From positions 121,821 through 185,820 of the forward strand of contig NZ_JAERLY010000008.1 in assembly GCF_018256155.1 (NCBI RefSeq): a stretch of 64,000 nucleotides of DNA, in the 5' to 3' direction. This DNA comes from Gluconobacter sp. Dm-62. Its GTDB lineage: Bacteria > Pseudomonadota > Alphaproteobacteria > Acetobacterales > Acetobacteraceae. The notes under the pieces were generated by a model. The model did no database searches. It was not told where the DNA came from and saw only the letters and a list, made by a program, of their open reading frames with translations. Shown in pieces: positions 1 through 15,552 of the stretch. Made by a program: the position numbers and the translations under genes. Positions within the stretch are counted from its first letter, which is position 1. The number at the start of each line of letters is the position of its first letter.

Positions 1-845
1 TCTGGTCCGGGGTTAACCCCGGACCAGAGGGCCTCGGCACGTCATGATACGCCTCATCGGGCGTACGTCCAGCCAGCGCCGTATGCGGACGCTTCCCGTT
101 ATAATGGGCGATCCATCCGGCAAGCCCGGCCCGTAGCTCTGATCCGGTCTCGAACGCATGCAGGTAGACGCATTCATATTTCAATGATCGCCACAAACGT
201 TCGATGAACACGTTATCCAGCCAGCGACCGCGCCCATCCATGCTGATGCGAACCTGGCGTCGTTCCAGAACCTCGGTGAACCGGGGCGTCGTGAATTGTG
301 AACCCTGGTCCGTGTTGAAAATCTCTGGGGAGCCGTAGCGCACCAGCGCATCCCGGAGTGCCTCGACGCAGAACTCCGCATCCATTGTGTTCGACAGACG
401 CCAGGACAGCACCTTGCGCGTGTGCCAATCCATCCACCGCCACCAGATAGAGAAAGCCCTTGTGCATCGGGATATAAGTGATGTCGGAACACCAGACCTG
501 GTCAGGCCGATTGATGACCAGATCCCGCAGCAGATATGGATATTTCCGATGCTCCGGATGGGGCACGGTCGTGCGCGGCTTCTGGTAGATCGCCCGCAGG
601 CCCATGATCGCCATGAGCCGCCGGACCCTCTTGCGGCCCACTTCATGTCCCAGGCGGCGCAGATGCCATGTCATCTGCCGTGAGCCATAATACGGCGTTT
701 CCAGGAACTGGGCGTCGATCAGCCGCATCAGCTCCAGATTGGCCTCGCTCTGTGGCACAGGCCGATAGTAGACGCCCGACTGGTTGAGTTGCAGCAGCGT
801 GCATTGCCGGATTATCGGCAGACGCGCTCGCTTCGGGTCAATCAT
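1..845 (-). pseudogene. IS3-family transposase OrfB (DDE integrase), frameshifted and open at the window edge
   Basis: The reading begins at 845 (MIDPKRARL), overlapping the orfA stop, and carries the HTH_21-like segment and the start of the rve integrase core, including the first catalytic Asp in VWCSDITYI. Near position 435 one extra G (minus-strand GTGGATGGATTGG where GTGATGGATTGG is expected) shifts the frame. The original product then continues in another frame as MDWHTRKVLSW, FNTDQGSQFT (second Asp) and DNVFIERLWRSLKYE (catalytic Glu), and stays open to base 1. All three catalytic residues are therefore encoded but split between frames. A read error cannot be excluded, since the insertion extends a short G run. 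The typical length of about 270-280 codons fits the combined frames. Confidence 0.85.
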
Positions 846-1153
846 CTGCCGCCTCTGATCACGCCCAACCGAGCAGAGGCATCGCGCAAAAAATCACGTT
901 CCACCAGCAATTGGCCGATCTTCGCATGCAGCTTCTCCACATCGGCCGGGCTGGCTGTCGCTTCCGGTGCTGCCTTGCCAGAAAAGAGGCTCGCCATGCC
1001 CTCGATCGCCTGGCGCTTCCATTGGGCGATCATCGTCTGATGCACGCCGTGCTTCGACGCCAGTTCCGCCAGCGTCTGCTCACCACGGATCGCCTCCAGC
1101 GCAACACGAGACTTGAACTCACCCGAATACCGTTTCCGCGTAACCTTACCCAT
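842..1153 (-). CDS. IS3-family transposase OrfA
   Basis: A 103-residue protein with the helix-turn-helix of IS3 OrfA proteins: an N-terminal RKRYSGEFKSRVALEAIRG segment, then TLAELASKHGVHQTMIAQWKR, then a short coiled region. OrfA binds the element ends and combines with OrfB in the active transposase. The stop codon overlaps the start of orfB, the usual arrangement in this family. The frame itself is intact; only its partner is broken. Confidence 0.88.
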   Translation of the reverse strand: MGKVTRKRYSGEFKSRVALEAIRGEQTLAELASKHGVHQTMIAQWKRQAIEGMASLFSGKAAPEATASPADVEKLHAKIGQLLVERDFLRDASARLGVIRGGR

Positions 1154-1189
1154 AAACCCGTCCTCTCTCAGATCGGATTATAGCTTATC

Positions 1190-1218
1190 GTCCTGTCCGA
1201 AAAATGGGGGCCACCTCA
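1190..1218 (-). repeat. Probable terminal inverted repeat of the IS3-type element
   Basis: Read on the minus strand this stretch starts TGAGGTGGCCCCC and ends TTTCGGACAGGA. It resembles ends of IS2-like IS3 elements and lies 36 bases upstream of the orfA start, where the end of the element is expected. The matching repeat is beyond base 1, so this is a placement by position and style only. Confidence 0.5.
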
Positions 1219-1553: not shown

Positions 1554-2286
1554 TCAGGAAGGGAAGAGGTGCATATTATAGATGATATTGGCCAGCCCGA
1601 TCCTTATGGTAGCTCGGGCGATGCCTACGGTCCGGATGAACAGTCCCGTCTGTAATTTCTGATCAGCAAAGACATGCTCGACAAGCGATCGAATGACCGA
1701 CTTTTCGTCGTTAAATCTTTGGATATGCCAGGACATAAGCTTGAGATGTGGCTTCTTCCTGTAGACCTTCGAGACAAAGCCCTGCTTCTCCATGAAGTCT
1801 TCATTGACTTTCGAGCAATAGGCTGTGTCGGCCCAGACCGTTGAGGCCGTGTTGGTTTTATCCAGCAGGCCTGCGCGCAGTCTGGCGCCATCACTGGCGG
1901 CCGCATCGGTTGTTTTCCACTTTCGCATCAGACGGAAACTTCTGCTCGATGGAAAGATGCGATCTGTAGCCAGAGAATAGGATGGCGAGATCGGTTGGAG
2001 GGAGCGTCCCATCATCCTGACGCTTCGCCTTGGTGAACTTCAATGTCCAGCGGGCGTGCCTGTGCTTGTGGGGCAGTTTGGCTCACTTGTCTTGCCACTC
2101 TTTGAGAATACGCTCCGCAGGTAAACCCACTTTCTCAGTGTTAGTGGTGCGCTGCTGGGGGTTGCAACCAATGTCGCGTCTAGGATTTGGACTGACATGG
2201 GGAGATAACCAGTCTTCCCGAAACCTCGATTTCTCACTGTCGGAGTTGGGTTGCTCTGGGCGCGCGGGTGGAATTGGCGGGGACAT
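1554..2286 (-). pseudogene. Decayed IS5-family transposase
   Basis: The C-terminal half is readable in one frame (1554-2015): DAAASDGARLRAGLLDKTNT, WADTAYCSK, and EHVFADQKLQTGLFIRTVGI near the end are hallmarks of the DDE_Tnp_1 domain of IS5-family transposases. Further upstream the same protein continues in two other frames: GYLPMSVQILDATLV in one (about 2140-2210) and TEKVGLPAERILKEWQDK in another (about 2083-2140). At least two frameshifts and an N-terminal truncation near 2286 are therefore present. Similar elements (IS1031/IS12528 type) are common in acetic acid bacteria. The terminal repeats were not identified. Confidence 0.8.
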
Positions 2287-2582: not shown

Positions 2583-3947
2583 ATGATGCAATACAAAATG
2601 AAAATCAAGGAAAACAAAAAAGTGAGCGATACATATAAATATAAATATTCAATTATGACGTGCTGTCGCTGGGAGTATAATAATATATCTGAGTGGGTAT
2701 CCTTCTATAAAAAATTAGGATTCGATCATATTTATGTATACTGCAATGATGATGACCCAAGGGATTTATACACAAATTGTCTTCCATTTCTTTCAGGAGA
2801 AGAAAAATATATAACATTTGTTCATTACACAGAGGTTGGAAATCAAATTGGAATGATATTGGATTTTCTGAGGAGATTTAAAAACCAGACGGAATGGATT
2901 ACGTTTTTAGATATAGATGAATTTTTGTTACTGAAAAATATTAATAACATTAAAGATTTTATGGTAAAATTCGAGGAGAATGATGCTGTTTACTTTAATT
3001 GGTCTATGTTTGGCACAAACTCTTTTGAAAAAAGACCTGAAGGAAGCGTTCTTCTGAATTATTGCTATAGAGAAGAAAAACTTCACCCGCTCACAAAAGT
3101 AATATCTAGAACAAAAATATATTCAGATGAATGGATTGAAAAAAATCCAGTTGATTCTATTCATCACGGAATAAGCAAATATCTTATGGATTTTAATTGT
3201 GTCAATGTTATTGGCAAAAATATGAATGAATTCATTGATAGTCCTATCGAAAGGCATATTGAATATTTATCTCTAGAATCTAATGCTATTAGAGAGATTG
3301 CTGTATTAAATCATTATTTTATGAAGTCTACTGAAGATTTTGTCCGGCGTTGGCAGCGAAGTGTAAGTAAGACCTTTTCGGGGCAGACGATTTGGAAGGA
3401 TGCATTTGATAACGGCGGGTATAAGGATATAATTAAGTTATCCAATATAAAAGATACATATTTACGCGATTTTTGGAGAAAGACAACAAACGGTGCTTTT
3501 GATATTGCCGTAGGAGATAAGGATGTTGTTATTTCTCTAGGAAAAAATTGTACACAAAGTTCTTTATCGGAATGGTCCAAAGGGTCCTCCTTGGAAGAAG
3601 ATGCGGGTCTGTTGGTTGGTGCTATAGATGATGGTGCTTACAGCAACCATACTGCTTTTGAAGAAAATCCTTGGTGGTCAATAGACCTTGGATCTATAAA
3701 AGAAATAAAAGAAATAAAGATTTACAACAGGAATGATTCTTCTTCAGATAGAATAAAGAATATATCTATTTATTTCTCGAATTTTGGAGATGATTGGAGA
3801 AATAAAATCTCGGTTAATGATATAAATTGGGTTGATGATAACGAGTTTTCTATAAAATTAATGGAAAATACAATAGATGCAAGGTTTATAAAAATAGAAG
3901 TTGTTGGAAATAATTTTTTGCACTTCAGGAGGGTGGAGATTTACTAA
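2583..3947 (+). CDS. GT92/DUF23-like glycosyltransferase with C-terminal discoidin-like (F5/8 type C) domain
   Basis: A 454-residue protein. Residues about 20-260 look like the bacterial DUF23/GT92-like (Glyco_tranf_2_4) glycosyltransferases: YSIMTCCRWEYNNISEWVSF near the start, LGFDHIYVYCNDD, the DxD-type FLDIDEF at residues 108-114, and NHYFMKSTEDFVRRW near 243. Residues about 315-454 resemble a discoidin/F5-8 type C carbohydrate-binding fold: an N-terminal NCTQSS segment, then NPWWSIDLGSIKEIKEIKIYN and the terminal FIKIEVVGNNFLHFRRVEIY. The likely role is transfer of a sugar to surface polysaccharide; donor and acceptor are unknown. No signal peptide is visible, so it is probably cytosolic or membrane-peripheral. 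The gene is far more AT-rich than everything around it and uses AT-ending codons, so recent transfer is likely. The start at 2583 has no good ribosome binding site; Met6 is an alternative. Confidence 0.75.
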   Translation: MMQYKMKIKENKKVSDTYKYKYSIMTCCRWEYNNISEWVSFYKKLGFDHIYVYCNDDDPRDLYTNCLPFLSGEEKYITFVHYTEVGNQIGMILDFLRRFKNQTEWITFLDIDEFLLLKNINNIKDFMVKFEENDAVYFNWSMFGTNSFEKRPEGSVLLNYCYREEKLHPLTKVISRTKIYSDEWIEKNPVDSIHHGISKYLMDFNCVNVIGKNMNEFIDSPIERHIEYLSLESNAIREIAVLNHYFMKSTEDFVRRWQRSVSKTFSGQTIWKDAFDNGGYKDIIKLSNIKDTYLRDFWRKTTNGAFDIAVGDKDVVISLGKNCTQSSLSEWSKGSSLEEDAGLLVGAIDDGAYSNHTAFEENPWWSIDLGSIKEIKEIKIYNRNDSSSDRIKNISIYFSNFGDDWRNKISVNDINWVDDNEFSIKLMENTIDARFIKIEVVGNNFLHFRRVEIY

Positions 3948-4536: not shown

Positions 4537-5829
4537 CTAGTTCTTTTCCAGACGGACCGACAGGCTGAGCGCATGGGCGTCCAGCCCTTCGGACTTTGCC
4601 AGAGCCACGCCGGCCGGACCGATCCGGCGCAGGCCGGCTTCGTCGGTTTCGATCGTGGTCGTGCGCTTGATGAAGTCGAAGACTGACAGGCCGGAGGCGA
4701 AACGCGCCGTGCGGCTGGTCGGCAGGACGTGGTTCGGGCCACCGACATAATCGCCCACGGCTTCGGGGCAATAGCGGCCCATGAAGATCGCGCCCGCATG
4801 ACGGATCATGGGCGAGAACTCACGCGGGGCGTCGAGCATGACTTCCAGATGCTCGGGTGCCAGCGCGTTGACGATCTCGGCGGCTTCTTCCAGCGAACGT
4901 ACCACGATGATTGCGCCGTGGTCTTCCCAGCTTTTCGTGGCGATGGTCGTACGGGGAAGCGTTTCCAGCTCCTTGCAGACGGCTTCGGCAGCACGCTCGG
5001 CAAAGGCGGCATCCGTCGTAATGAGGATGGCCTGCGCCTGCTCGTCATGCTCCGCCTGGGCCAGCAGATCGAGCGCTACGAGGCGCGGCTCGTTTTGGCC
5101 ATCGGCCACGACCACGACTTCGGACGGTCCGGCGATGCTGTCGATTCCAACATGGCCAAAGACCTGCCGCTTGGCTTCCGCGACATACGCATTGCCCGGG
5201 CCGACGATGCGGTCCACCGGGGCCATGAGGTCCGTACCAAACGCCATTGCGCCGACGGCCTGTGCGCCACCGATGCGGTAGATTTCCGTAACGCCGCAAA
5301 GCTGCGCGGCTGCGAGAACCAGCGGGTTCAGCACACCATCCGGCGTCGGGACGCACATGGCCAGCCGCTTCACACCCGCCACACGGGCGGGTAGGGCGTT
5401 CATCAGCACGGAAGACGGATAGGCCGCCTTGCCGCCTGGAACATACAGCCCAACCGCATCCAGCGGGGTCCAGCGCATGCCGAGGCGAATGCCGTCCTCA
5501 TCTGTGAAATCCAGATCCTTGGGCATCTGTGCGGCGTGAAACGTCTCGATCCGGCGGGCGGCGGTGCGTAAGGCATCCATCAGATCCGCAGGGACGCGCG
5601 CGGCTTCGGACGCGATTTCTTCAGCGCTGATCCGCAGCTTTTCAGCCGGAAGCGTCAGGCGGTCAAAGCGGGCAGTATAGTCGCACAGGGCTTCGTCACC
5701 CCGGCTGCGCACATCGGCAAGGATCGCGCGGACCGGCTCGGCCACGCTGCGTTCGTCGCTGCCACGCGCGGCCAGCAGTGTTGCGAAGTCTTCGGCGAAA
5801 CCGGTAGCGGACGTATCGAGGCGTTTCAT
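4537..5829 (-). CDS. hisD: Histidinol dehydrogenase
   Basis: HisD catalyses the last two steps of histidine synthesis, the NAD-dependent oxidation of L-histidinol through histidinal to histidine, in the cytosol with a bound zinc. The 430-residue length is normal for the family. Recognisable blocks are VGLYVPGGKAAYPSSVLMNA, RIGGAQAVGAMAFGT, DRIVGPGNAYVAEAKR, DSIAGPSEVVVVAD, AQAEHDEQAQA and GPNHVLPTSRTARFASGLSV. The start overlaps the stop of hisG by one base (TGATG), so the two are translationally coupled. The rest of the his pathway is not in this window. Confidence 0.98.
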   Translation of the reverse strand: MKRLDTSATGFAEDFATLLAARGSDERSVAEPVRAILADVRSRGDEALCDYTARFDRLTLPAEKLRISAEEIASEAARVPADLMDALRTAARRIETFHAAQMPKDLDFTDEDGIRLGMRWTPLDAVGLYVPGGKAAYPSSVLMNALPARVAGVKRLAMCVPTPDGVLNPLVLAAAQLCGVTEIYRIGGAQAVGAMAFGTDLMAPVDRIVGPGNAYVAEAKRQVFGHVGIDSIAGPSEVVVVADGQNEPRLVALDLLAQAEHDEQAQAILITTDAAFAERAAEAVCKELETLPRTTIATKSWEDHGAIIVVRSLEEAAEIVNALAPEHLEVMLDAPREFSPMIRHAGAIFMGRYCPEAVGDYVGGPNHVLPTSRTARFASGLSVFDFIKRTTTIETDEAGLRRIGPAGVALAKSEGLDAHALSLSVRLEKN

Positions 5830-6554
5830 CAGACCGTCCCCTCCGTGGCGAGGGCCGCACGGAAGCGTTCGATCAGGGCGCTGATTTCTTCGGGACGGGT
5901 CTTGAGCGCGACACGGTTGACGATCAGGCGGCTCGTGACATGGGCGATGGTCTCGGTTTCCATCAGGCCATTGGCGCGCAGTGTGGAGCCGGTATCGACC
6001 AGATCGACGATCACGCTCGCCAGATCCAGCGTCGGCGCGAGTTCCATTGCACCGTTCAGATGCACGATCTCGGCGTTAATGGCGCGGGAGGCGAAATGGC
6101 GGCGGGCGATGGTGGGATATTTCGTGGCGACGCGCAGACGGGACTGGCCGGTCGCGGGGTCTTCCACCATGGCCTTCGGGCGCGCCACGCAGATGCGGCA
6201 GCCGCCAATGCCCAGATCGAGCGGGGCGTAGATGTCCGGATAGTCAAATTCCATCAGCACATCCGCGCCGCACACGCCGATATCAGCGCCGCCATAGGCC
6301 ACGAAGGTCGCGACATCGAAAGAGCGGACGCGCACGACGTCCAGATTTGGATCGGACGTGCCAAAGCGCAGGCGGCGGCTGCTTTCGGTCAAACAGTCCG
6401 GGTCGGGCTCGATGCCCGTACGCGTCAGGACAGGAGCGAGCGCCTTGAGGATGCGCCCTTTCGGCAACGCCAAGATCAGCGGCGTGCGATGATGCGCGAT
6501 CGTGTCCGTTCCGTTCCGGGGTATGATCGGGGGGTCGGTCTGGAGCGCTGTCAT
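5829..6554 (-). CDS. hisG: ATP phosphoribosyltransferase, short form
   Basis: HisG starts histidine synthesis by joining ATP and PRPP to N1-(5-phosphoribosyl)-ATP. From the ATG at 6554 (MTALQTDPPI) the protein has 241 residues. The frame extends upstream to 6725, but that part (MQRGVSATCW onward) looks like non-coding translation. Typical blocks are LILALPKGRILKAL, DVVRVRSFDVATFVAYGGADIGVCG and the PRPP-binding region ending LASVIVDLVDTGSTLRANGL. It lacks the C-terminal regulatory domain of the long form, so by family knowledge it should need a HisZ partner, which is not in this window. It is co-transcribed with hisD and lies 115 bases downstream of gmk. Confidence 0.96.
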   Translation of the reverse strand: MTALQTDPPIIPRNGTDTIAHHRTPLILALPKGRILKALAPVLTRTGIEPDPDCLTESSRRLRFGTSDPNLDVVRVRSFDVATFVAYGGADIGVCGADVLMEFDYPDIYAPLDLGIGGCRICVARPKAMVEDPATGQSRLRVATKYPTIARRHFASRAINAEIVHLNGAMELAPTLDLASVIVDLVDTGSTLRANGLMETETIAHVTSRLIVNRVALKTRPEEISALIERFRAALATEGTV

Positions 6555-6669
6555 GCGACGTCTGGTCCTTGGCTGTCCGCAGTCACTGGGTAGGCAGCGC
6601 ATATCACGAAGCCGGAATCTTCCCAAGTCTTGGCCGTAGGCGATGGCTCGGCCAGACGCGCCGACGGGG

Positions 6670-7296
6670 TCAGCGGCTGAAGCTGGCGACCATCTCCAGC
6701 AGGTTGCGCTGACGCCGCGTTGCAAGCCGCGCGGCTGTCAGAACCGAGCGGGCCTGCGAAATCGCCGTGTCCAGCTCCGAGTTGATGATCGTATGATCGA
6801 ACTCGGCCCAGTGGGAAATTTCATCCAGCGCTGCCTTCATGCGCTTGGCAATTTCTTCCGGATGGTCTGAAGCGCGCTTGTTCAGCCGGCGCTCCAGTTC
6901 TTCTAAGGAAGGCGGCAGGACGAACAGGCTTACCACATCGTCCGGCAAGGCGGCGCGCAGAAGGCGGTGTCCCTGCCAGTCGATATCGAAGACCATGTCA
7001 TGCCCGGCATCCAGTGCTTCCTCGACCGGCGCGCGTGGCGTGCCATATCCCCGACCAAAGACCTCCGCCCATTCCAGCAGTTCACCATCCGCAGCCATGC
7101 GGCGGAACTCCGCGATATCCCGGAAATGGTAATGTACACCCTCGACTTCCCCCGGACGCGGCCCGCGCGTCGTGACCGAGACGGAATGGCGCAGGGTTGG
7201 CTCCGAAGCGCGCAGGGCGTTGGCAATGGTGGACTTGCCCGCACCAGACGGGGCCGAGATCACCAGACAGACGCCACGGCGGGGCAGTTGGGTCAT
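6670..7296 (-). CDS. gmk: Guanylate kinase
   Basis: Gmk phosphorylates GMP to GDP with ATP in the cytosol. The 208-residue protein has the P-loop SAPSGAGKST at residues 14-23, followed by the GMP-binding segment SVSVTTRGPRPGEVEGVHYHF and the lid/adenine region DIDWQGHRLLR and FVLPPSLEELERRL. The ATG at 7296 is preceded by AAGGAGA at a good distance. The upstream intergenic space holds copy A of the dispersed hairpin repeat. Confidence 0.97.
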   Translation of the reverse strand: MTQLPRRGVCLVISAPSGAGKSTIANALRASEPTLRHSVSVTTRGPRPGEVEGVHYHFRDIAEFRRMAADGELLEWAEVFGRGYGTPRAPVEEALDAGHDMVFDIDWQGHRLLRAALPDDVVSLFVLPPSLEELERRLNKRASDHPEEIAKRMKAALDEISHWAEFDHTIINSELDTAISQARSVLTAARLATRRQRNLLEMVASFSR

Positions 7297-9063: not shown

Positions 9064-9093
9064 ACGGCCGCTCCCCCATGGAGCGGCCGTTTT
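9064..9093 (+). terminator. Intercistronic hairpin/attenuator between pqqA and pqqB
   Basis: A perfect 10-base stem, ACGGCCGCTC pairing with GAGCGGCCGT around a 7-base loop, is followed at once by TTTCGTT. This is the form of an intrinsic terminator, yet it lies inside the pqq operon. It would partly stop transcription after pqqA or stabilise the 3' end of a short pqqA transcript, giving more peptide message than enzyme message. Confidence 0.75.
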
Positions 9094-9140
9094 CGTTCAT
9101 GGGTGCCGCAGGGTGCCCCAGTCAGACGGTTTGTGAAAAA

Positions 9141-10055
9141 ATGATTGATGTCATCGTGCTCGGCGCGGCGGCAGGGGGCGGTTTTCCGCAGTGGAACTCC
9201 GCAGCGCCCGGCTGTGTGGCCGCCCGCACGCGACAGGGCGCAAAAGCCCGGACCCAGGCCTCCATTGCCGTCAGCGCCGACGGAAAACGCTGGTTCATTC
9301 TCAACGCCTCGCCCGATCTGCGTCAGCAGATCATCGAGACCCCGGCCCTGCACCATCAGGGCAGCCTGCGTGGCACACCCATTCAGGGCGTCGTGCTGAC
9401 CTGTGGCGAGATCGACGCCATAACCGGGCTCCTGACATTGCGTGAGCGTGAACCTTTTACGCTGATGGGGAGCGACTCGACCCTTCAGCAGCTTGCGGAC
9501 AACCCGATTTTCGGCGCGCTTGACCCCGAAATTGCTCCGCGCGTCCCGCTTATTCTTGATGAAGCCACGTCCCTGATGAACAAGGACGGGATCCCGTCCG
9601 GTCTTCTGCTCACGGCGTTTGCCGTTCCCGGCAAGGCGCCTCTTTACGCGGAAGCCGCAGGCTCACGCCCGGACGAAACGCTGGGCCTGTCCATTACGGA
9701 TGGAAAGAAGACGCTGCTCTTCATTCCCGGCTGCGCGCACATCACGCCGGAGATCGTGGAACGGGTCGCTGCGGCCGATCTTGTGTTCTTCGACGGGACG
9801 TTGTGGCGGGATGATGAAATGATCCGCGCCGGATTGAGCCCCAAGAGCGGACAGCGGATGGGGCACGTGTCGGTGAATGACGCCGGTGGGCCGGTCGAAT
9901 GTTTCACAACATGCGAAAAACCTCGCAAGGTGTTGATTCATATCAACAACTCAAATCCGATTCTGTTTGAAGACAGCCCCGAACGCAAAGACGTCGAACG
10001 CGCCGGATGGACGGTTGCGGAAGACGGCATGACTTTCAGACTGGACACACCATGA
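9141..10055 (+). CDS. pqqB: PQQ biosynthesis protein PqqB
   Basis: PqqB is a metallo-beta-lactamase-fold protein that acts on an intermediate of PQQ synthesis, probably as an iron-dependent hydroxylase of the tyrosine moiety. The 304-residue product starts MIDVIVLGAAAGGGFPQWNS, the classic PqqB N-terminus, which is why I chose the ATG at 9141 rather than the in-frame ATG at 9078. Later blocks are GVVLTCGEIDAITGLLTLRE, VFFDGTLWRDDEM and GHVSVND. The stop overlaps the pqqC start (ATGA). Confidence 0.98.
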   Translation: MIDVIVLGAAAGGGFPQWNSAAPGCVAARTRQGAKARTQASIAVSADGKRWFILNASPDLRQQIIETPALHHQGSLRGTPIQGVVLTCGEIDAITGLLTLREREPFTLMGSDSTLQQLADNPIFGALDPEIAPRVPLILDEATSLMNKDGIPSGLLLTAFAVPGKAPLYAEAAGSRPDETLGLSITDGKKTLLFIPGCAHITPEIVERVAAADLVFFDGTLWRDDEMIRAGLSPKSGQRMGHVSVNDAGGPVECFTTCEKPRKVLIHINNSNPILFEDSPERKDVERAGWTVAEDGMTFRLDTP

Positions 10056-10771
10056 CGCTCCTTACGCCCGACCAGCTTGAAGCAAAGCTTCGTCAGATCG
10101 GTGCCGAGCGGTATCACAACCGCCATCCGTTCCATCGCAAGCTGCATGATGGCAAGCTCGACCGCGCGCAGGTTCAGGCCTGGGCGCTGAACCGCTATTA
10201 TTATCAGGCCCGCATCCCTGCCAAGGACGCGACGCTTCTCGCACGTCTGCCGACGGCCGAGCTGCGCCGGGAATGGCGTCGCCGGATCGAGGATCATGAC
10301 GGCACGGAGCCCGGAACGGGTGGTGTCGCGCGCTGGCTGATGCTGACGGACGGTTTGGGACTGGATCGCGAGTATGTGGAAAGCCTCGACGGTCTGCTTC
10401 CGGCGACGCGCTTTTCGGTGGATGCCTATGTGAATTTCGTGCGGGACCAGTCGATTCTGGCCGCCATCGCATCGTCGCTCACGGAACTGTTCTCGCCGAC
10501 GATTATCAGCGAGCGCGTGTCCGGAATGCTGCGGCACTATGATTTCGTGTCGGAAAAGACACTGGCCTATTTCACCCCCCGTCTGACGCAGGCGCCGCGG
10601 GATTCCGATTTCGCTCTGGCTTATGTGCGCGAAAACGCCCGCACTCCTGAACAGCAGAAAGAGGTTCTGGGCGCGCTGGAGTTCAAGTGTTCCGTGCTGT
10701 GGACGATGCTGGACGCGCTCGACTACGCCTATGTGGAAGGTCATATTCCGCCAGGCGCCTTCGTTCCATGA
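10052..10771 (+). CDS. pqqC: Pyrroloquinoline-quinone synthase PqqC
   Basis: PqqC catalyses the last step, the cofactor-free ring closure and eight-electron oxidation of AHQQ to PQQ with oxygen. The protein has 239 residues and a heme-oxygenase-like all-helical fold. Visible family blocks are HPFHRKLHDGKLDRAQVQAW, NRYYYQARIPAKDATLLARL, DHDGTEPGTGGVARWL and the C-terminal VLWTMLDALDYAY. The start overlaps the pqqB stop and its stop overlaps the pqqD start, both as ATGA, so translation is coupled. Confidence 0.98.
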   Translation: MTLLTPDQLEAKLRQIGAERYHNRHPFHRKLHDGKLDRAQVQAWALNRYYYQARIPAKDATLLARLPTAELRREWRRRIEDHDGTEPGTGGVARWLMLTDGLGLDREYVESLDGLLPATRFSVDAYVNFVRDQSILAAIASSLTELFSPTIISERVSGMLRHYDFVSEKTLAYFTPRLTQAPRDSDFALAYVRENARTPEQQKEVLGALEFKCSVLWTMLDALDYAYVEGHIPPGAFVP

Positions 10772-11058
10772 CGGAAGCCCCCCCGGGTATCGCGGAGGAG
10801 ACAGTGCTCTCCTTCGCCCGTGGCCACCGGCTCCAGCACGATCGCGTGCGGGATCTGTGGATCGTGCAGGCCCCTGAAAAAGCGTTTGTGATTGAGGGCT
10901 CCGCGCCGCATATTCTGCGGCTGCTGGATGGGAAACGCAGCGTCGGCGATATCATCCAGCAGCTTGCAAACGAGTTTTCCGCCCCGCGTGAGGTCATTGC
11001 GAAGGATGTCCTCGCGCTTCTTTCTGAACTGACAGAAAAGAACGTTCTGCACATATGA
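10768..11058 (+). CDS. pqqD: PQQ biosynthesis chaperone PqqD
   Basis: PqqD is the RiPP-recognition protein that binds PqqA and presents it to PqqE. The 96-residue frame starting [13 protein letters not shown] has the winged-helix family pattern: RHRLQHDRV-type N-terminal strand region, then [19 protein letters not shown] and [19 protein letters not shown]. The frame extends upstream within pqqC, but the ATG at 10768 forms an ATGA overlap with the pqqC stop and fits the family length. Confidence 0.96.
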
Positions 11059-12125
11059 CACTTCCTTCGCCGCCGATGAGCCTTCTGGCTGAACTGACGC
11101 ATCGATGCCCACTGTCCTGCCCCTACTGCTCCAATCCGCTTGAGCTTGAACGCAAGGCGGCAGAACTCGATACAGCCACCTGGCGCACCGTGCTGGAGCA
11201 GGCTGCCGAGCTCGGTGTGCTGCAGGTTCATTTCTCCGGCGGCGAGCCCATGGCCCGTCCGGATCTGGTTGAACTGGTTTCCGTTGCCCAGAAGCTCAAC
11301 CTGTATTCCAACCTGATTACGTCAGGCATCCTGCTGGACGAGCCAAAGCTGGAAGCGCTCGACAGGGCTGGCCTGGATCATGTTCAGCTGTCTTTCCAGG
11401 ATGTGACGGAAGCGGGCGCCGAGCGTATTGGCGGTCTCAAGGGGGCGCAGCAGCGGAAGATCGAAGCAGCACGGTTGATCCGGGCGTCCGGCATTCCGAT
11501 GACGCTGAACTTTGTGGTGCACAGGGAAAATGTTGCCCGTATCCCCGAGATGTTCGCATTGGCGCGGGAGCTGGGGGCGGGGCGGGTCGAGATCGCCCAT
11601 ACCCAGTATTATGGGTGGGGTCTGAAGAACCGTGATGCGCTGCTGCCCAGCCGCGAGCAGCTACAGGAATCCACGCGCGCCGTGGAGGTGGAGCGTGCGA
11701 AGGGCGGTCTTTCCATCGATTATGTGACGCCGGACTATCATGCTGACCGACCCAAACCCTGCATGGGAGGCTGGGGGCAGCGGTTCGTGAATGTTACGCC
11801 TTCCGGGCGTGTGTTGCCGTGCCATGCGGCCGAAATCATTCCCGATGTCTCGTTCCCGAATGTGAAGGATGTGAGCCTGTCCGAGATCTGGAACGCCTCG
11901 CCGCTCTTCAACATGTTCCGTGGTACGGACTGGATGCCCGAGCCCTGCCGGTCCTGTGAACGCAAGGAACGGGACTGGGGTGGCTGCCGGTGTCAGGCAA
12001 TGGCGCTGACGGGAAATGCAGCAAACACTGATCCCGTCTGCAGCCTTTCTCCGTTCCACGACCGGGTGGAACGGGCTGTGACCGAGGCGTCAGAAAGGCC
12101 GGAACTTCTTTATCGGCGTTTCTGA
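11055..12125 (+). CDS. pqqE: PqqA peptide cyclase PqqE, radical SAM
   Basis: PqqE forms the carbon-carbon bond between Glu and Tyr of PqqA using radical SAM chemistry. The 356-residue protein has the cluster motif with Cys18, Cys22 and Cys25 ([11 protein letters not shown]), the SAM-binding [11 protein letters not shown] and a C-terminal SPASM domain with cysteines at 298, 301, 311, 313 and 329 for auxiliary iron-sulfur clusters. The ATG overlaps the pqqD stop. No pqqF or pqqG follows; another protease outside the window must process the peptide. The gene ends 31 bases from the convergent ribH. Confidence 0.98.
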
Positions 12126-14521: not shown

Positions 14522-15552
14522 GCGTTTTCCCTCAGCAGTCGCAGCGGGCTCTCGTCCCGCGATTTCAGATCAATGCGGTCAGCGCCCGCAGTTTTGTGAC
14601 CCGCAGTTTTATGAATGGTGAGCCAGTCGTCCCACAGCCCGGCTTCGGCCACTGAGGCCAGCAGGGCAGGCCCGGCTTCGATCATCGCCCAGTTCGAGCC
14701 GCGCTCCGCCAGCATGGCGGGGACCGAGAGCAGATCGGGGCTGGAAATGACGTCGAATCCGGCCTGCGTCATCTCGGCTGTCCAGTCTGCCGGAAGTCTT
14801 CCGTGCCGGTCGCACACGACGAGCAGGCGCGGCTTGCGGTTATCATGGTCCGGCACATGCCGGACCGTGAAGCGCGGGCGGTCCGTCAGAACGGTGCCGA
14901 TGCCCGTGATGATCGCATCCGTTGCCCGGCGCAGGCGATGCGCGAGGACGAGCGAGTCCGAGGATGTGAAGGTTTTCTGCCCTGGCGGCGGCACCATGGA
15001 GCCATTTTCGTCCAGCGCCTGTTTGACGCTGATCCAAGGGCGGTGCCGGACGACGCGGCTTGCGAAAGGTGCCAGAAGGGCCCGGCAGTCCCGCGCCAGA
15101 TCCGCCATATCCGGCCGATCCGCCAGCATGACCACGCGCTTTGCACCCGGCATTTCGCGGAGCCGAGATGCCCCCCCCGCAGCCTGCGGGTTGGGGTCGG
15201 CCGCACCGATCCAGACCTCGCGGACCGGGCTGTTGCGCAGGGCCTCGCTGCATGGCGGTGTGCGCCCCGTGTGATTGCAGGGTTCCAGCGTGACGAGAGC
15301 CACACGCGCCTGATCCAGCACACCCGCTGCCCGGGCCTGCGCCAGAGCCATCGCTTCGGCATGGGGCTGTCCGACGCGCGGATGAACGCCAACCGTCAGG
15401 ATGCGGCCTTGCGCATCCAACAGCGCGCATCCTACAGACGGGTTGGGAGCCGTGGCACCGAAGGTTTCGACAGCCTGCGAAATGGCCGTACGGAACCCGT
15501 CGCGGATTGCGTTCAGCGCTACAGTGTCGGAAAGGGTGATCTGGTCAGCCAA
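14503..15552 (-). CDS. ribD: Bifunctional diaminohydroxyphosphoribosylaminopyrimidine deaminase / uracil reductase
   Basis: RibD performs deamination and then NADPH-dependent reduction in riboflavin synthesis. In the 349-residue product the deaminase domain has HAEAMAL (64-70) and the zinc cysteines in PCNHTGRTPPC (91-101). The C-terminal half is the reductase domain (RPWISVKQALDENGSM, then DAIITGIGTVLTDRPRF). The first codon that fits is TTG at 15552; no ATG is available near the family N-terminus, so a weak start follows the riboswitch. It is the first gene of the operon. Confidence 0.95.
   Translation of the reverse strand: MADQITLSDTVALNAIRDGFRTAISQAVETFGATAPNPSVGCALLDAQGRILTVGVHPRVGQPHAEAMALAQARAAGVLDQARVALVTLEPCNHTGRTPPCSEALRNSPVREVWIGAADPNPQAAGGASRLREMPGAKRVVMLADRPDMADLARDCRALLAPFASRVVRHRPWISVKQALDENGSMVPPPGQKTFTSSDSLVLAHRLRRATDAIITGIGTVLTDRPRFTVRHVPDHDNRKPRLLVVCDRHGRLPADWTAEMTQAGFDVISSPDLLSVPAMLAERGSNWAMIEAGPALLASVAEAGLWDDWLTIHKTAGHKTAGADRIDLKSRDESPLRLLRENACSLES

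What the first reader, a model, noticed from the sequence alone, without database searches (positions are those of the whole stretch)
2583..3947. Glycosyltransferase fused to a discoidin-like domain
The protein joins a DUF23/GT92-like catalytic domain (residues about 20-260) with a C-terminal F5/8 type C-like fold (about 315-454). Discoidin domains are usually extracellular carbohydrate binders, but no signal peptide is visible. The combination might bind the acceptor glycan inside the cell or in a surface assembly complex.
Basis: inference. Interest (0 to 1): 0.5.

Follow-up and report, generated by a model that had tools for sequence, protein, structure and literature searches.

The report
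Glycosyltransferase with built-in F-type lectin
An acetic acid bacterium carries a probably cytoplasmic sugar-adding enzyme whose tail is a lectin of the fucose-binding type, an arrangement found repeatedly in its bacterial family that probably lets the enzyme recognise the glycan it extends.

Summary
Window 2583-3947 (+) encodes one 454-residue protein. Residues 19-300 are a GT92 glycosyltransferase: Pfam above cut-off, fold like plant galactan synthase GalS1 (Z 17.9). Residues 312-454 are an F5/8C-superfamily domain of the F-type lectin (fucolectin) type (lectinolysin Z 19.4, 1.7 A), with the His/Arg/Arg fucose-site motif.

The fusion is not a local accident. 65 of the 80 best-scoring related loci encode both domains in one ORF, joined by a linker of nearly constant length (median 15 residues). 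In 40 aligned sequences H356 is present in 40 and R390 in 38. The same lectin type also sits on GT61 (one in this island), GT17 and multi-GT chains. A crude scan saw no export signal.

Best explanation: a cytoplasmic GT whose lectin holds the growing acceptor glycan, as in GalS1 or GALNTs. The ligand is open: this genome has no gmd over cut-off and no fucose pyrophosphorylase, and genomes with the fusion have gmd no more often, if anything less often, so self-made L-fucose is doubtful. The gene lies in an AT-rich (32% GC) island interrupted by IS remnants. An acyltransferase gene accompanies it here and in Acetobacter pomorum. New variant of a known kind.

The parts
2583..3947 (+). GT92 + F-type lectin fusion gene, 454 aa; an alternative start GTG at 2622 would give 441 aa
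   Evidence: alternative start from sequence, relative L027 and low pLDDT of residues 1-14
2637..3482 (+). GT92 catalytic domain, residues 19-300
   Evidence: Pfam PF01697 at 32-264 and PF13704 at 29-126; GalS1 8d3t Z 17.9, 3.5 A, 230 aligned; profile hit to 8d3t E 2.2e-5
2910..2921 (+). D110-I-D112-E113, presumed metal/nucleotide-sugar DxD motif
   Evidence: invariant in 40 of 40 rows of A2; aligned with the DVDE of GalS1
3516..3944 (+). F-type lectin-like domain, residues 312-454
   Evidence: PF00754; 4gwj Z 19.4, 1.7 A, 132 aligned; 2j1t Z 19.2; 3cqo Z 18.7; 1k12 Z 17.5
3648..3650 (+). H356, first residue of the fucose-site motif
   Evidence: 40 of 40 rows of A2; aligned with the H of 4gwi and 3cqo
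3729..3731 (+). R383, second residue of the motif
   Evidence: 30 of 40 rows (T/V/S/I in 10)
3750..3752 (+). R390, third residue of the motif
   Evidence: 38 of 40 rows, K in 1, gap in 1
1..1217 (-). part of an IS3-family insertion sequence (it reaches the window edge), between this gene and the other two AT-rich genes of the island
   Evidence: 91.6% identical to an IS3 transposase region of an Acetobacter ascendens plasmid; HTH_Tnp_1 in 842-1153
1554..2015 (-). fragment of a DDE transposase
   Evidence: PF01609 E 5.8e-7

Best explanation
It is a soluble, most likely cytoplasmic, metal-dependent GT92 glycosyltransferase carrying its own acceptor-binding lectin. The GT-A domain transfers one sugar (galactose is the family precedent) from a nucleotide sugar. 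The C-terminal F-type lectin domain, held by a short linker of nearly constant length, grips a particular sugar of the growing surface glycan, probably a lipid-linked repeat unit at the inner membrane. It thereby selects and positions the acceptor. Shown: both folds (predicted), the fusion, conservation of both sites, and absence of export signals by a crude scan. Inferred: acceptor binding, the glycan class, the location and the donor. Unknown: the sugar bound. L-fucose is the motif's precedent, but this genome lacks the two GDP-fucose routes that were tested.
For: GT92 by profile and fold. F-type lectin by profile and fold. Motif H-X26-R-X-D-X4-R present. In 40 aligned sequences (P0001 and 39 relatives that I chose from the 80 loci) H356 is 40 of 40 and R390 38 of 40, while mean lectin identity is only 38%. 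Linker median 15 residues, 5-95% range 13-22, in the 61 of 66 ORFs with one domain of each kind. Domain distances are correlated, r 0.79, reached by 0 of 2000 permutations, which fits joint inheritance. Against G. morbifer dN/dS is about 0.10 in both domains, with dS above 1. 63 of 66 fusions have no strongly hydrophobic 19-residue stretch; P0001's highest 19-residue mean is 0.66, well under the 1.6 used. The same lectin type ends GT61 (3 of 3 members scanned), GT17 and multi-GT polypeptides. Two of the three closest loci have a related hexapeptide acyltransferase gene nearby, 46.5% identical over 187 residues, as glycan-decorating genes would. Precedents: GalS1 joins a CBM95 to a GT92 domain (PMC11062476, passages); GALNT and GnT-IV lectin domains serve substrate recognition (PMC11254600, passages).
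Against: No binding or activity was measured. The genome has no gmd match over cut-off (best 70 of 415 bits) and no fucose pyrophosphorylase match. Among 299 family genomes gmd (E <= 1e-90) does not go with these lectins: 34 of 77 lectin genomes against 110 of 222 others (p 0.43). With the near full-length fusion it is 11 of 34 against 133 of 265 (p 0.07), or 11 of 37 against 133 of 262 with three partial matches added (p 0.02): a lack, not an excess. R383 is replaced in 10 of 40 sequences. Against A. pomorum dN/dS of the lectin is higher, about 0.25, and dS of the GT could not be computed. 15 of 80 related GT loci have no lectin in the same ORF, so not every such GT needs it. The lectin type also sits on proteins with esterase-like or unclassified N-terminal parts, so it is not purely a GT module. 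In structure, chitosan-binding modules (Z 17.4) tie with eel agglutinin (17.5), 2 below the best F-type lectins.
Confidence: 0.6

Rival explanations
1. The lectin binds the enzyme's own product or polymer, for processivity or chain-length control, rather than choosing the acceptor.
For: Multi-GT chains end in one lectin (L047: GT61, GT2_4, GT92, lectin; L070: three GTs, lectin), and two of the fusions carry two lectins (L036, L039), as an assembly line holding its chain might.
Against: The window protein has one GT and one lectin. Nothing computed here separates acceptor from product.
Confidence: 0.15
2. The domain is a structural or oligomerisation jelly roll that has lost sugar binding.
For: R383 is replaced in 10 of 40 sequences; the strict calcium motif is not in P0001 and in 1 of 69 GT92-lectin stretches; no tested fucose route in this genome.
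Against: H356 is invariant and R390 nearly so in the 40; these are the sugar-binding residues of the published motif (PMC5712786, passages). All three of this genome's domains keep the His and both Arg (alignment A3).
Confidence: 0.13
3. The lectin binds fucose of an insect or plant host, so the enzyme acts outside the cell or on imported host glycans.
For: The closest relatives are in G. morbifer and A. pomorum, listed together in papers on fly-associated bacteria (listing only). The bacterium seems unable to make GDP-fucose by the routes tested.
Against: No signal peptide or membrane helix by hydropathy; a GT needs nucleotide sugars, which are scarce outside cells (general knowledge).
Confidence: 0.07
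4. The fusion is a decaying mobile-island relic without function in this strain.
For: AT-rich island interrupted by transposase remnants.
Against: Intact frame, catalytic and lectin sites conserved, and dN/dS about 0.1 against the nearest kin, though that value describes past selection and dS is saturated.
Confidence: 0.05

Closest known systems
GalS1, plant beta-1,4-galactan synthase (GT92 with N-terminal CBM95; PDB 8d3t, 8d3z)
   Same: GT92 catalytic domain (Z 17.9 over 230 residues) joined to a module that the review calls an RG-I backbone-binding domain
   Different: The module is another family (CBM95) and N-terminal; GalS1 is a plant cell wall enzyme, this bacterial protein has no export signal that I could see
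C. elegans GALT-1 (GT92; galactosylates core fucose)
   Same: GT92, and its acceptor sugar is a fucose (title of the GALT-1 paper in the reference list of PMC10151413)
   Different: No F-type lectin mentioned in the passages I read; an animal enzyme; the acceptor here is unknown
F-type lectins: lectinolysin, SpX/CBM47, FBP32, eel agglutinin AAA
   Same: Fold (Z 17.5-19.4) and the H...R.D....R motif
   Different: Those are lectins, or modules of secreted proteins; this one is fused to a GT and lacks the strict calcium motif
GALNT (ricin-B lectin) and GnT-IV lectin domains; B4GALNT3 PA14 domain
   Same: A GT with an attached lectin-type domain that serves substrate recognition or activity (PMC11254600, passages)
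   Different: Other domain and GT families (recalled); enzymes of the mammalian secretory pathway
Bacterial enzymes carrying F-type lectin domains (Bishnoi et al. 2015, as reviewed in PMC5712786)
   Same: F-type lectin domains joined to glycoenzymes, lipases and methyltransferases are on record (passage)
   Different: Glycosyltransferases are not named in the passages I read; the word does not occur in the review's main text; the original paper was not held

Membership tests
GT92 (Glyco_transf_92) | Pfam profile match above the curated cut-off | tested here: met
   49.3 bits, cut-off 23, residues 32-264
GT92 (Glyco_transf_92) | GT-A fold like GalS1 with an acidic DxD | tested here: met
   8d3t Z 17.9, 3.5 A, 230 aligned; D110 and D112 invariant in 40 of 40 and aligned with GalS1 DVDE
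GT92 (Glyco_transf_92) | catalytic histidine reported for GalS1 (PMC11062476) | tested here: inconclusive
   H244 is invariant in 40 of 40, but the profile alignment to GalS1 covers only 47 residues and does not reach it
GT92 (Glyco_transf_92) | metal-dependent galactosyltransferase activity | not testable with these tools
   needs an enzyme assay
F-type lectin domain | F-type jelly-roll fold | tested here: met
   the nine best rows are F-type lectins, Z 18.7-19.4; best other domains (chitosan-binding modules) Z 17.4
F-type lectin domain | fucose motif, H, spacer, R-x-D-x4-R/K | tested here: met
   H356, R383, D385, R390 with spacer 26. Published spacer is 24, and the 24 form is not in P0001; the FBP32 chain shown also has 26, counted by eye
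F-type lectin domain | cation motif h2DGx | tested here: not met
   not found in P0001; strict form in 1 of 69 GT92-lectin stretches, looser hhDG in 16, hhNG in 11, none in 34, no anchor for the test in 7. I therefore call the domain F-type lectin-like
F-type lectin domain | binding of L-fucose | not testable with these tools
   needs a binding assay; genome context gives no support
Generic discoidin / F5/8C (CBM32-like) | nearest structural relatives are CBM32-like or clotting-factor C domains rather than F-type lectins | tested here: not met
   best such rows: chitosan-binding modules Z 17.4, a named CBM32 Z 16.2; F-type lectins 18.7-19.4, eel agglutinin 17.5. Same superfamily nonetheless (PF00754)

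The most novel reading that the evidence does not exclude
Acetobacteraceae run a family-wide cytoplasmic glycan-assembly scheme in which an interchangeable F-type lectin module, attached to GT92, GT61, GT17 and other enzymes and to multi-GT chains, reads one common sugar of the growing surface glycan. The animal-style fucose pocket has been re-tuned to a sugar that these bacteria make themselves, since most sampled genomes with the GT92 fusion (23 of 34) show no gmd match.
Probability: 0.3. Interest if true: 0.65.

Novelty: new variant of a known kind. Interest (0 to 1): 0.45.

Why it matters
F-type lectins are best known as recognition proteins of animals and as modules of bacterial toxins and exoenzymes. 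A recurrent, probably cytoplasmic form fused to glycosyltransferases would make this module a tool for building glycans as well as reading foreign ones. It gives a testable set of enzymes in which the lectin ligand should report the acceptor, useful for solving acetic acid bacterial surface glycans and for designing glycosyltransferases with chosen acceptors.

Tried and rejected
NCBIfam gave no match for P0001. Fucose as a self-made ligand was tested by gmd and fucose pyrophosphorylase and not supported. Of the 144 genomes counted as gmd-positive, 89 have a match over the curated cut-off; the rest pass only E <= 1e-90. Rhamnose was tested through rmlD: 268 of 299 genomes have it, and all 34 near full-length-fusion genomes do (Fisher p 0.03), too common to say much, and relatedness was not controlled. 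A conserved neighbourhood was sought in 81 loci: the commonest neighbour recurs in 17 (RNase E/G by Pfam), the next in 14 (malate synthase); two glycan-type neighbours recur in 5 loci each, a group with the Hint/AIDA and GT4 proteins of this genome, and a protein with two GT2 domains. So there is no general operon, but glycan genes are not absent. A phage or plasmid origin of the whole gene: no record covers 80% of the protein in 72,556 plasmids (best an Acetobacter aceti plasmid, residues 15-322, 32.9%) or in 50,697 phages. Promoter and terminator scans gave no more than shuffles. Solved-structure searches for two other lectin carriers gave, in the rows shown (50 of 50 and 60 of 93), only matches to the lectin half apart from one at E 0.8 (A4, A5). 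The 83 lectin ORFs are not a random sample: 36 loci came from the tools' best matches and 40 stretches were chosen by me.

Full report
What is there. The window is part of contig C51 of a 3.46 Mb genome. Its genus in the tool's grouping also holds a genome whose contig length (G218:C175, 173,352 bases) equals that of a Gluconobacter thailandicus record, so genus Gluconobacter and family Acetobacteraceae are inferences. ORF 2583-3947 (+) is intact. Pfam finds GT92 at residues 32-264 and F5/8 type C at 347-442, both above cut-off. A single-sequence PDB search ranks F-type lectins first (4gwi 3e-10, 3cqo, 2j1r, 1k12). A profile of 16 sequences adds GalS1, a plant GT92 galactan synthase, at E 8e-5, and a profile of the GT part alone gives E 2e-5 with the DxD of GalS1 aligned to D110-I-D112.

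Structure. AlphaFold2 with an alignment of 40 sequences gives mean pLDDT 88 and pTM 0.81. In the second look at solved structures, residues 312-454 match lectinolysin (Z 19.4, 1.7 A, 132 aligned), SpX (19.2), FBP32 (18.7) and eel agglutinin (17.5); chitosan-binding modules follow at 17.4, tied with the last. Residues 6-307 match GalS1 (Z 17.9, 3.5 A, 230 aligned).

Sites. The published fucose motif is H, spacer 24, R-x-D-x4-R/K (PMC5712786, passages). P0001 has H356-X26-R-N-D-X4-R390; the spacer of 26 is also that of the FBP32 chain aligned, by my count. In 40 aligned sequences (P0001 and 39 relatives) H356 is present in 40, R383 in 30, D/E385 in 38 and R390 in 38 (plus one K and one gap). In a wider set of 73 lectin stretches, including six ORFs without GT92, the counts are H 68, R383 52, D/E 67, R390 65. 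A regular expression found the full motif in 39 of 63 GT92-fused stretches. The strict cation motif is in 1 of 69 stretches and not in P0001; a looser hhDG is in 16. The GT side keeps D110, D112, E113 and H244 in 40 of 40.

Distribution. In GTDB contigs 270 relatives were found and the best 80 kept. 65 of these 80 loci encode GT92 and lectin in one ORF (the lectin match is under 100 residues in six), and 15 do not; two of the 15 run to a contig edge. Because the best full-length matches were kept, this share is biased upward. By record title 48 of the 65 bear Acetobacteraceae names (genus to family from my own knowledge), five Methylobacterium or Methylorubrum, one Caulobacter, and 11 are named only to a higher rank. 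With a lectin profile, 77 of 299 family genomes match, 4 of 385 in the class sample and 13 of 398 in the phylum sample, five of these in the own family. By the kinship order of the listing the class sample seems to hold five family genomes, so 4 of 5 against 0 of 380 (Fisher 5.5e-9); the split rests on that reading. In the phylum sample eight matches lie outside the family, three of them in the same class. The lectin type is enriched in the family, not exclusive to it.

Carriers. Of 83 distinct lectin ORFs (76 loci, not a random sample), 31 are GT92-like, 1 is a weak case and 51 have no GT92 match. Among the 51, N-terminal parts fall by blastp into groups of 11, 10, 10, 6 and 2, plus six singles; six have almost no N-terminal part in the fetched stretch. 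Pfam was run on some members only. Group of 11: three scanned, all GT61. First group of 10: three scanned, two esterase-like below cut-off, one none. Second group of 10: three scanned, none. Group of 6: two scanned, one weak GT11 below cut-off, one none. Single L162 is GT17 above cut-off, and the single on L120, the same gene as L068:9448-10848 by place, carries Glyco_tranf_2_4. Two related loci string several GTs before one lectin: L047 (GT61, GT2_4, GT92) and L070 (three GTs). This genome has three lectin proteins: the window one, a GT61 fusion 4.3 kb away on the other strand, and one on contig C11 with no recognised N-terminal family.

Context. The gene is 32% GC in a region of about 60%. 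Just outside the window lie two more AT-rich genes, the GT61 fusion and a hexapeptide acyltransferase. Between them and the gene are an IS3 element (window 1-1217) and a DDE transposase fragment; no IS was identified on the right side. The two nearest relatives, 75% (G. morbifer) and 70% (A. pomorum), are also 31% GC and lie among other genes. In A. pomorum a hexapeptide acyltransferase about 1 kb downstream is 46.5% identical over 187 residues to the one of this island (E 6e-49); none was found in the G. morbifer stretch held. This fits lateral transfer of the fusion gene, at least sometimes with an acyltransferase. Domain distance matrices correlate (r 0.79, 0 of 2000 permutations). dN/dS against G. 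morbifer is near 0.10 in both domains with dS above 1; against A. pomorum it is about 0.25 for the lectin and not computable for the GT.

Mechanism. A crude hydropathy scan finds no signal or membrane helix in P0001 and no strongly hydrophobic stretch in 63 of 66 fusions, so the enzyme probably works in the cytoplasm. The conserved pocket residues, short constant linker and recurrence on several GT families favour a lectin that holds the acceptor. The nearest precedents are GalS1 (CBM95 + GT92) and eukaryotic GTs with lectin domains. GALT-1, a GT92 enzyme, is titled a core-fucoside galactosyltransferase in a reference list; the paper itself was not held. That makes a fucose-like acceptor attractive, but the genome evidence does not support it: no gmd over cut-off and no fucose pyrophosphorylase here, and no positive association across 299 genomes (34 of 77 against 110 of 222; 11 of 34 against 133 of 265, p 0.07, or 11 of 37 against 133 of 262, p 0.02). 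The genomes are related, so these tests are rough. rmlD is present in all 34 fusion genomes but also in most others. Acetan, an Acetobacteraceae heteropolysaccharide, contains rhamnose (PMC10097950, passage). The ligand stays open.

Novelty. F-type lectin domains joined to bacterial glycoenzymes and other enzymes are on record (review passage). I did not find a glycosyltransferase fusion described in searches of the open-access library (listings; passages), but the key survey paper was not held, so absence from print is not claimed. I file it as a new variant of a known kind: a GT92 enzyme with an F-type lectin-like module, part of an Acetobacteraceae habit of adding this module to glycan enzymes.

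Noticed in passing
L024:10437-12080 (-), G000:C51:118437-120080, outside the window: A GT61 glycosyltransferase fused to the same lectin type, 33% GC, in the same AT-rich island; its lectin is only 30% identical to that of the window protein.
   Followed up: partly
L024:12901-13518 (-) and L028:10316-11077 (+): Related hexapeptide acyltransferases (46.5% over 187 residues) near the fusion gene here and in A. pomorum.
   Followed up: partly
L025:10058-11530 (+), G000:C11: Third lectin-bearing protein of the genome, N-terminal 344 residues without a Pfam family; the one of its five relatives that was scanned (L121) hits GT11 weakly, below cut-off.
   Followed up: partly
L047:6063-9356 and L070:250-3477: Single polypeptides with several glycosyltransferase domains followed by one F-type lectin-like domain.
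   Followed up: partly
L149, L150, L151, L153, L161, L164, L170: Ten ORFs with related N-terminal parts and the same lectin type; two of three scanned resemble esterases below cut-off; L153 has two lectins.
   Followed up: no
L024:12731-12794 and 15359-15422, the second inside the window near its DDE fragment: A 64-nt inverted repeat, 77% complementary, one arm at the end of the DDE transposase ORF and the other beside the acyltransferase gene: perhaps a second copy of the same IS end.
   Followed up: no
L024:31-4839 and 4869-6809 (+), outside the window: A protein of at least 1602 residues with AIDA-stalk and Hint_2 domains next to a GT4-type glycosyltransferase, upstream of the island.
   Followed up: no
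window 9078-12125: ORFs that look like a pqqBCDE cluster by recall (no family search made), in the ordinary 60% GC background.
   Followed up: no
GT92-type lectins in 10 of 40 aligned sequences: R383 of the sugar site is replaced by T, V, S or I, which may mark a changed sugar preference.
   Followed up: no
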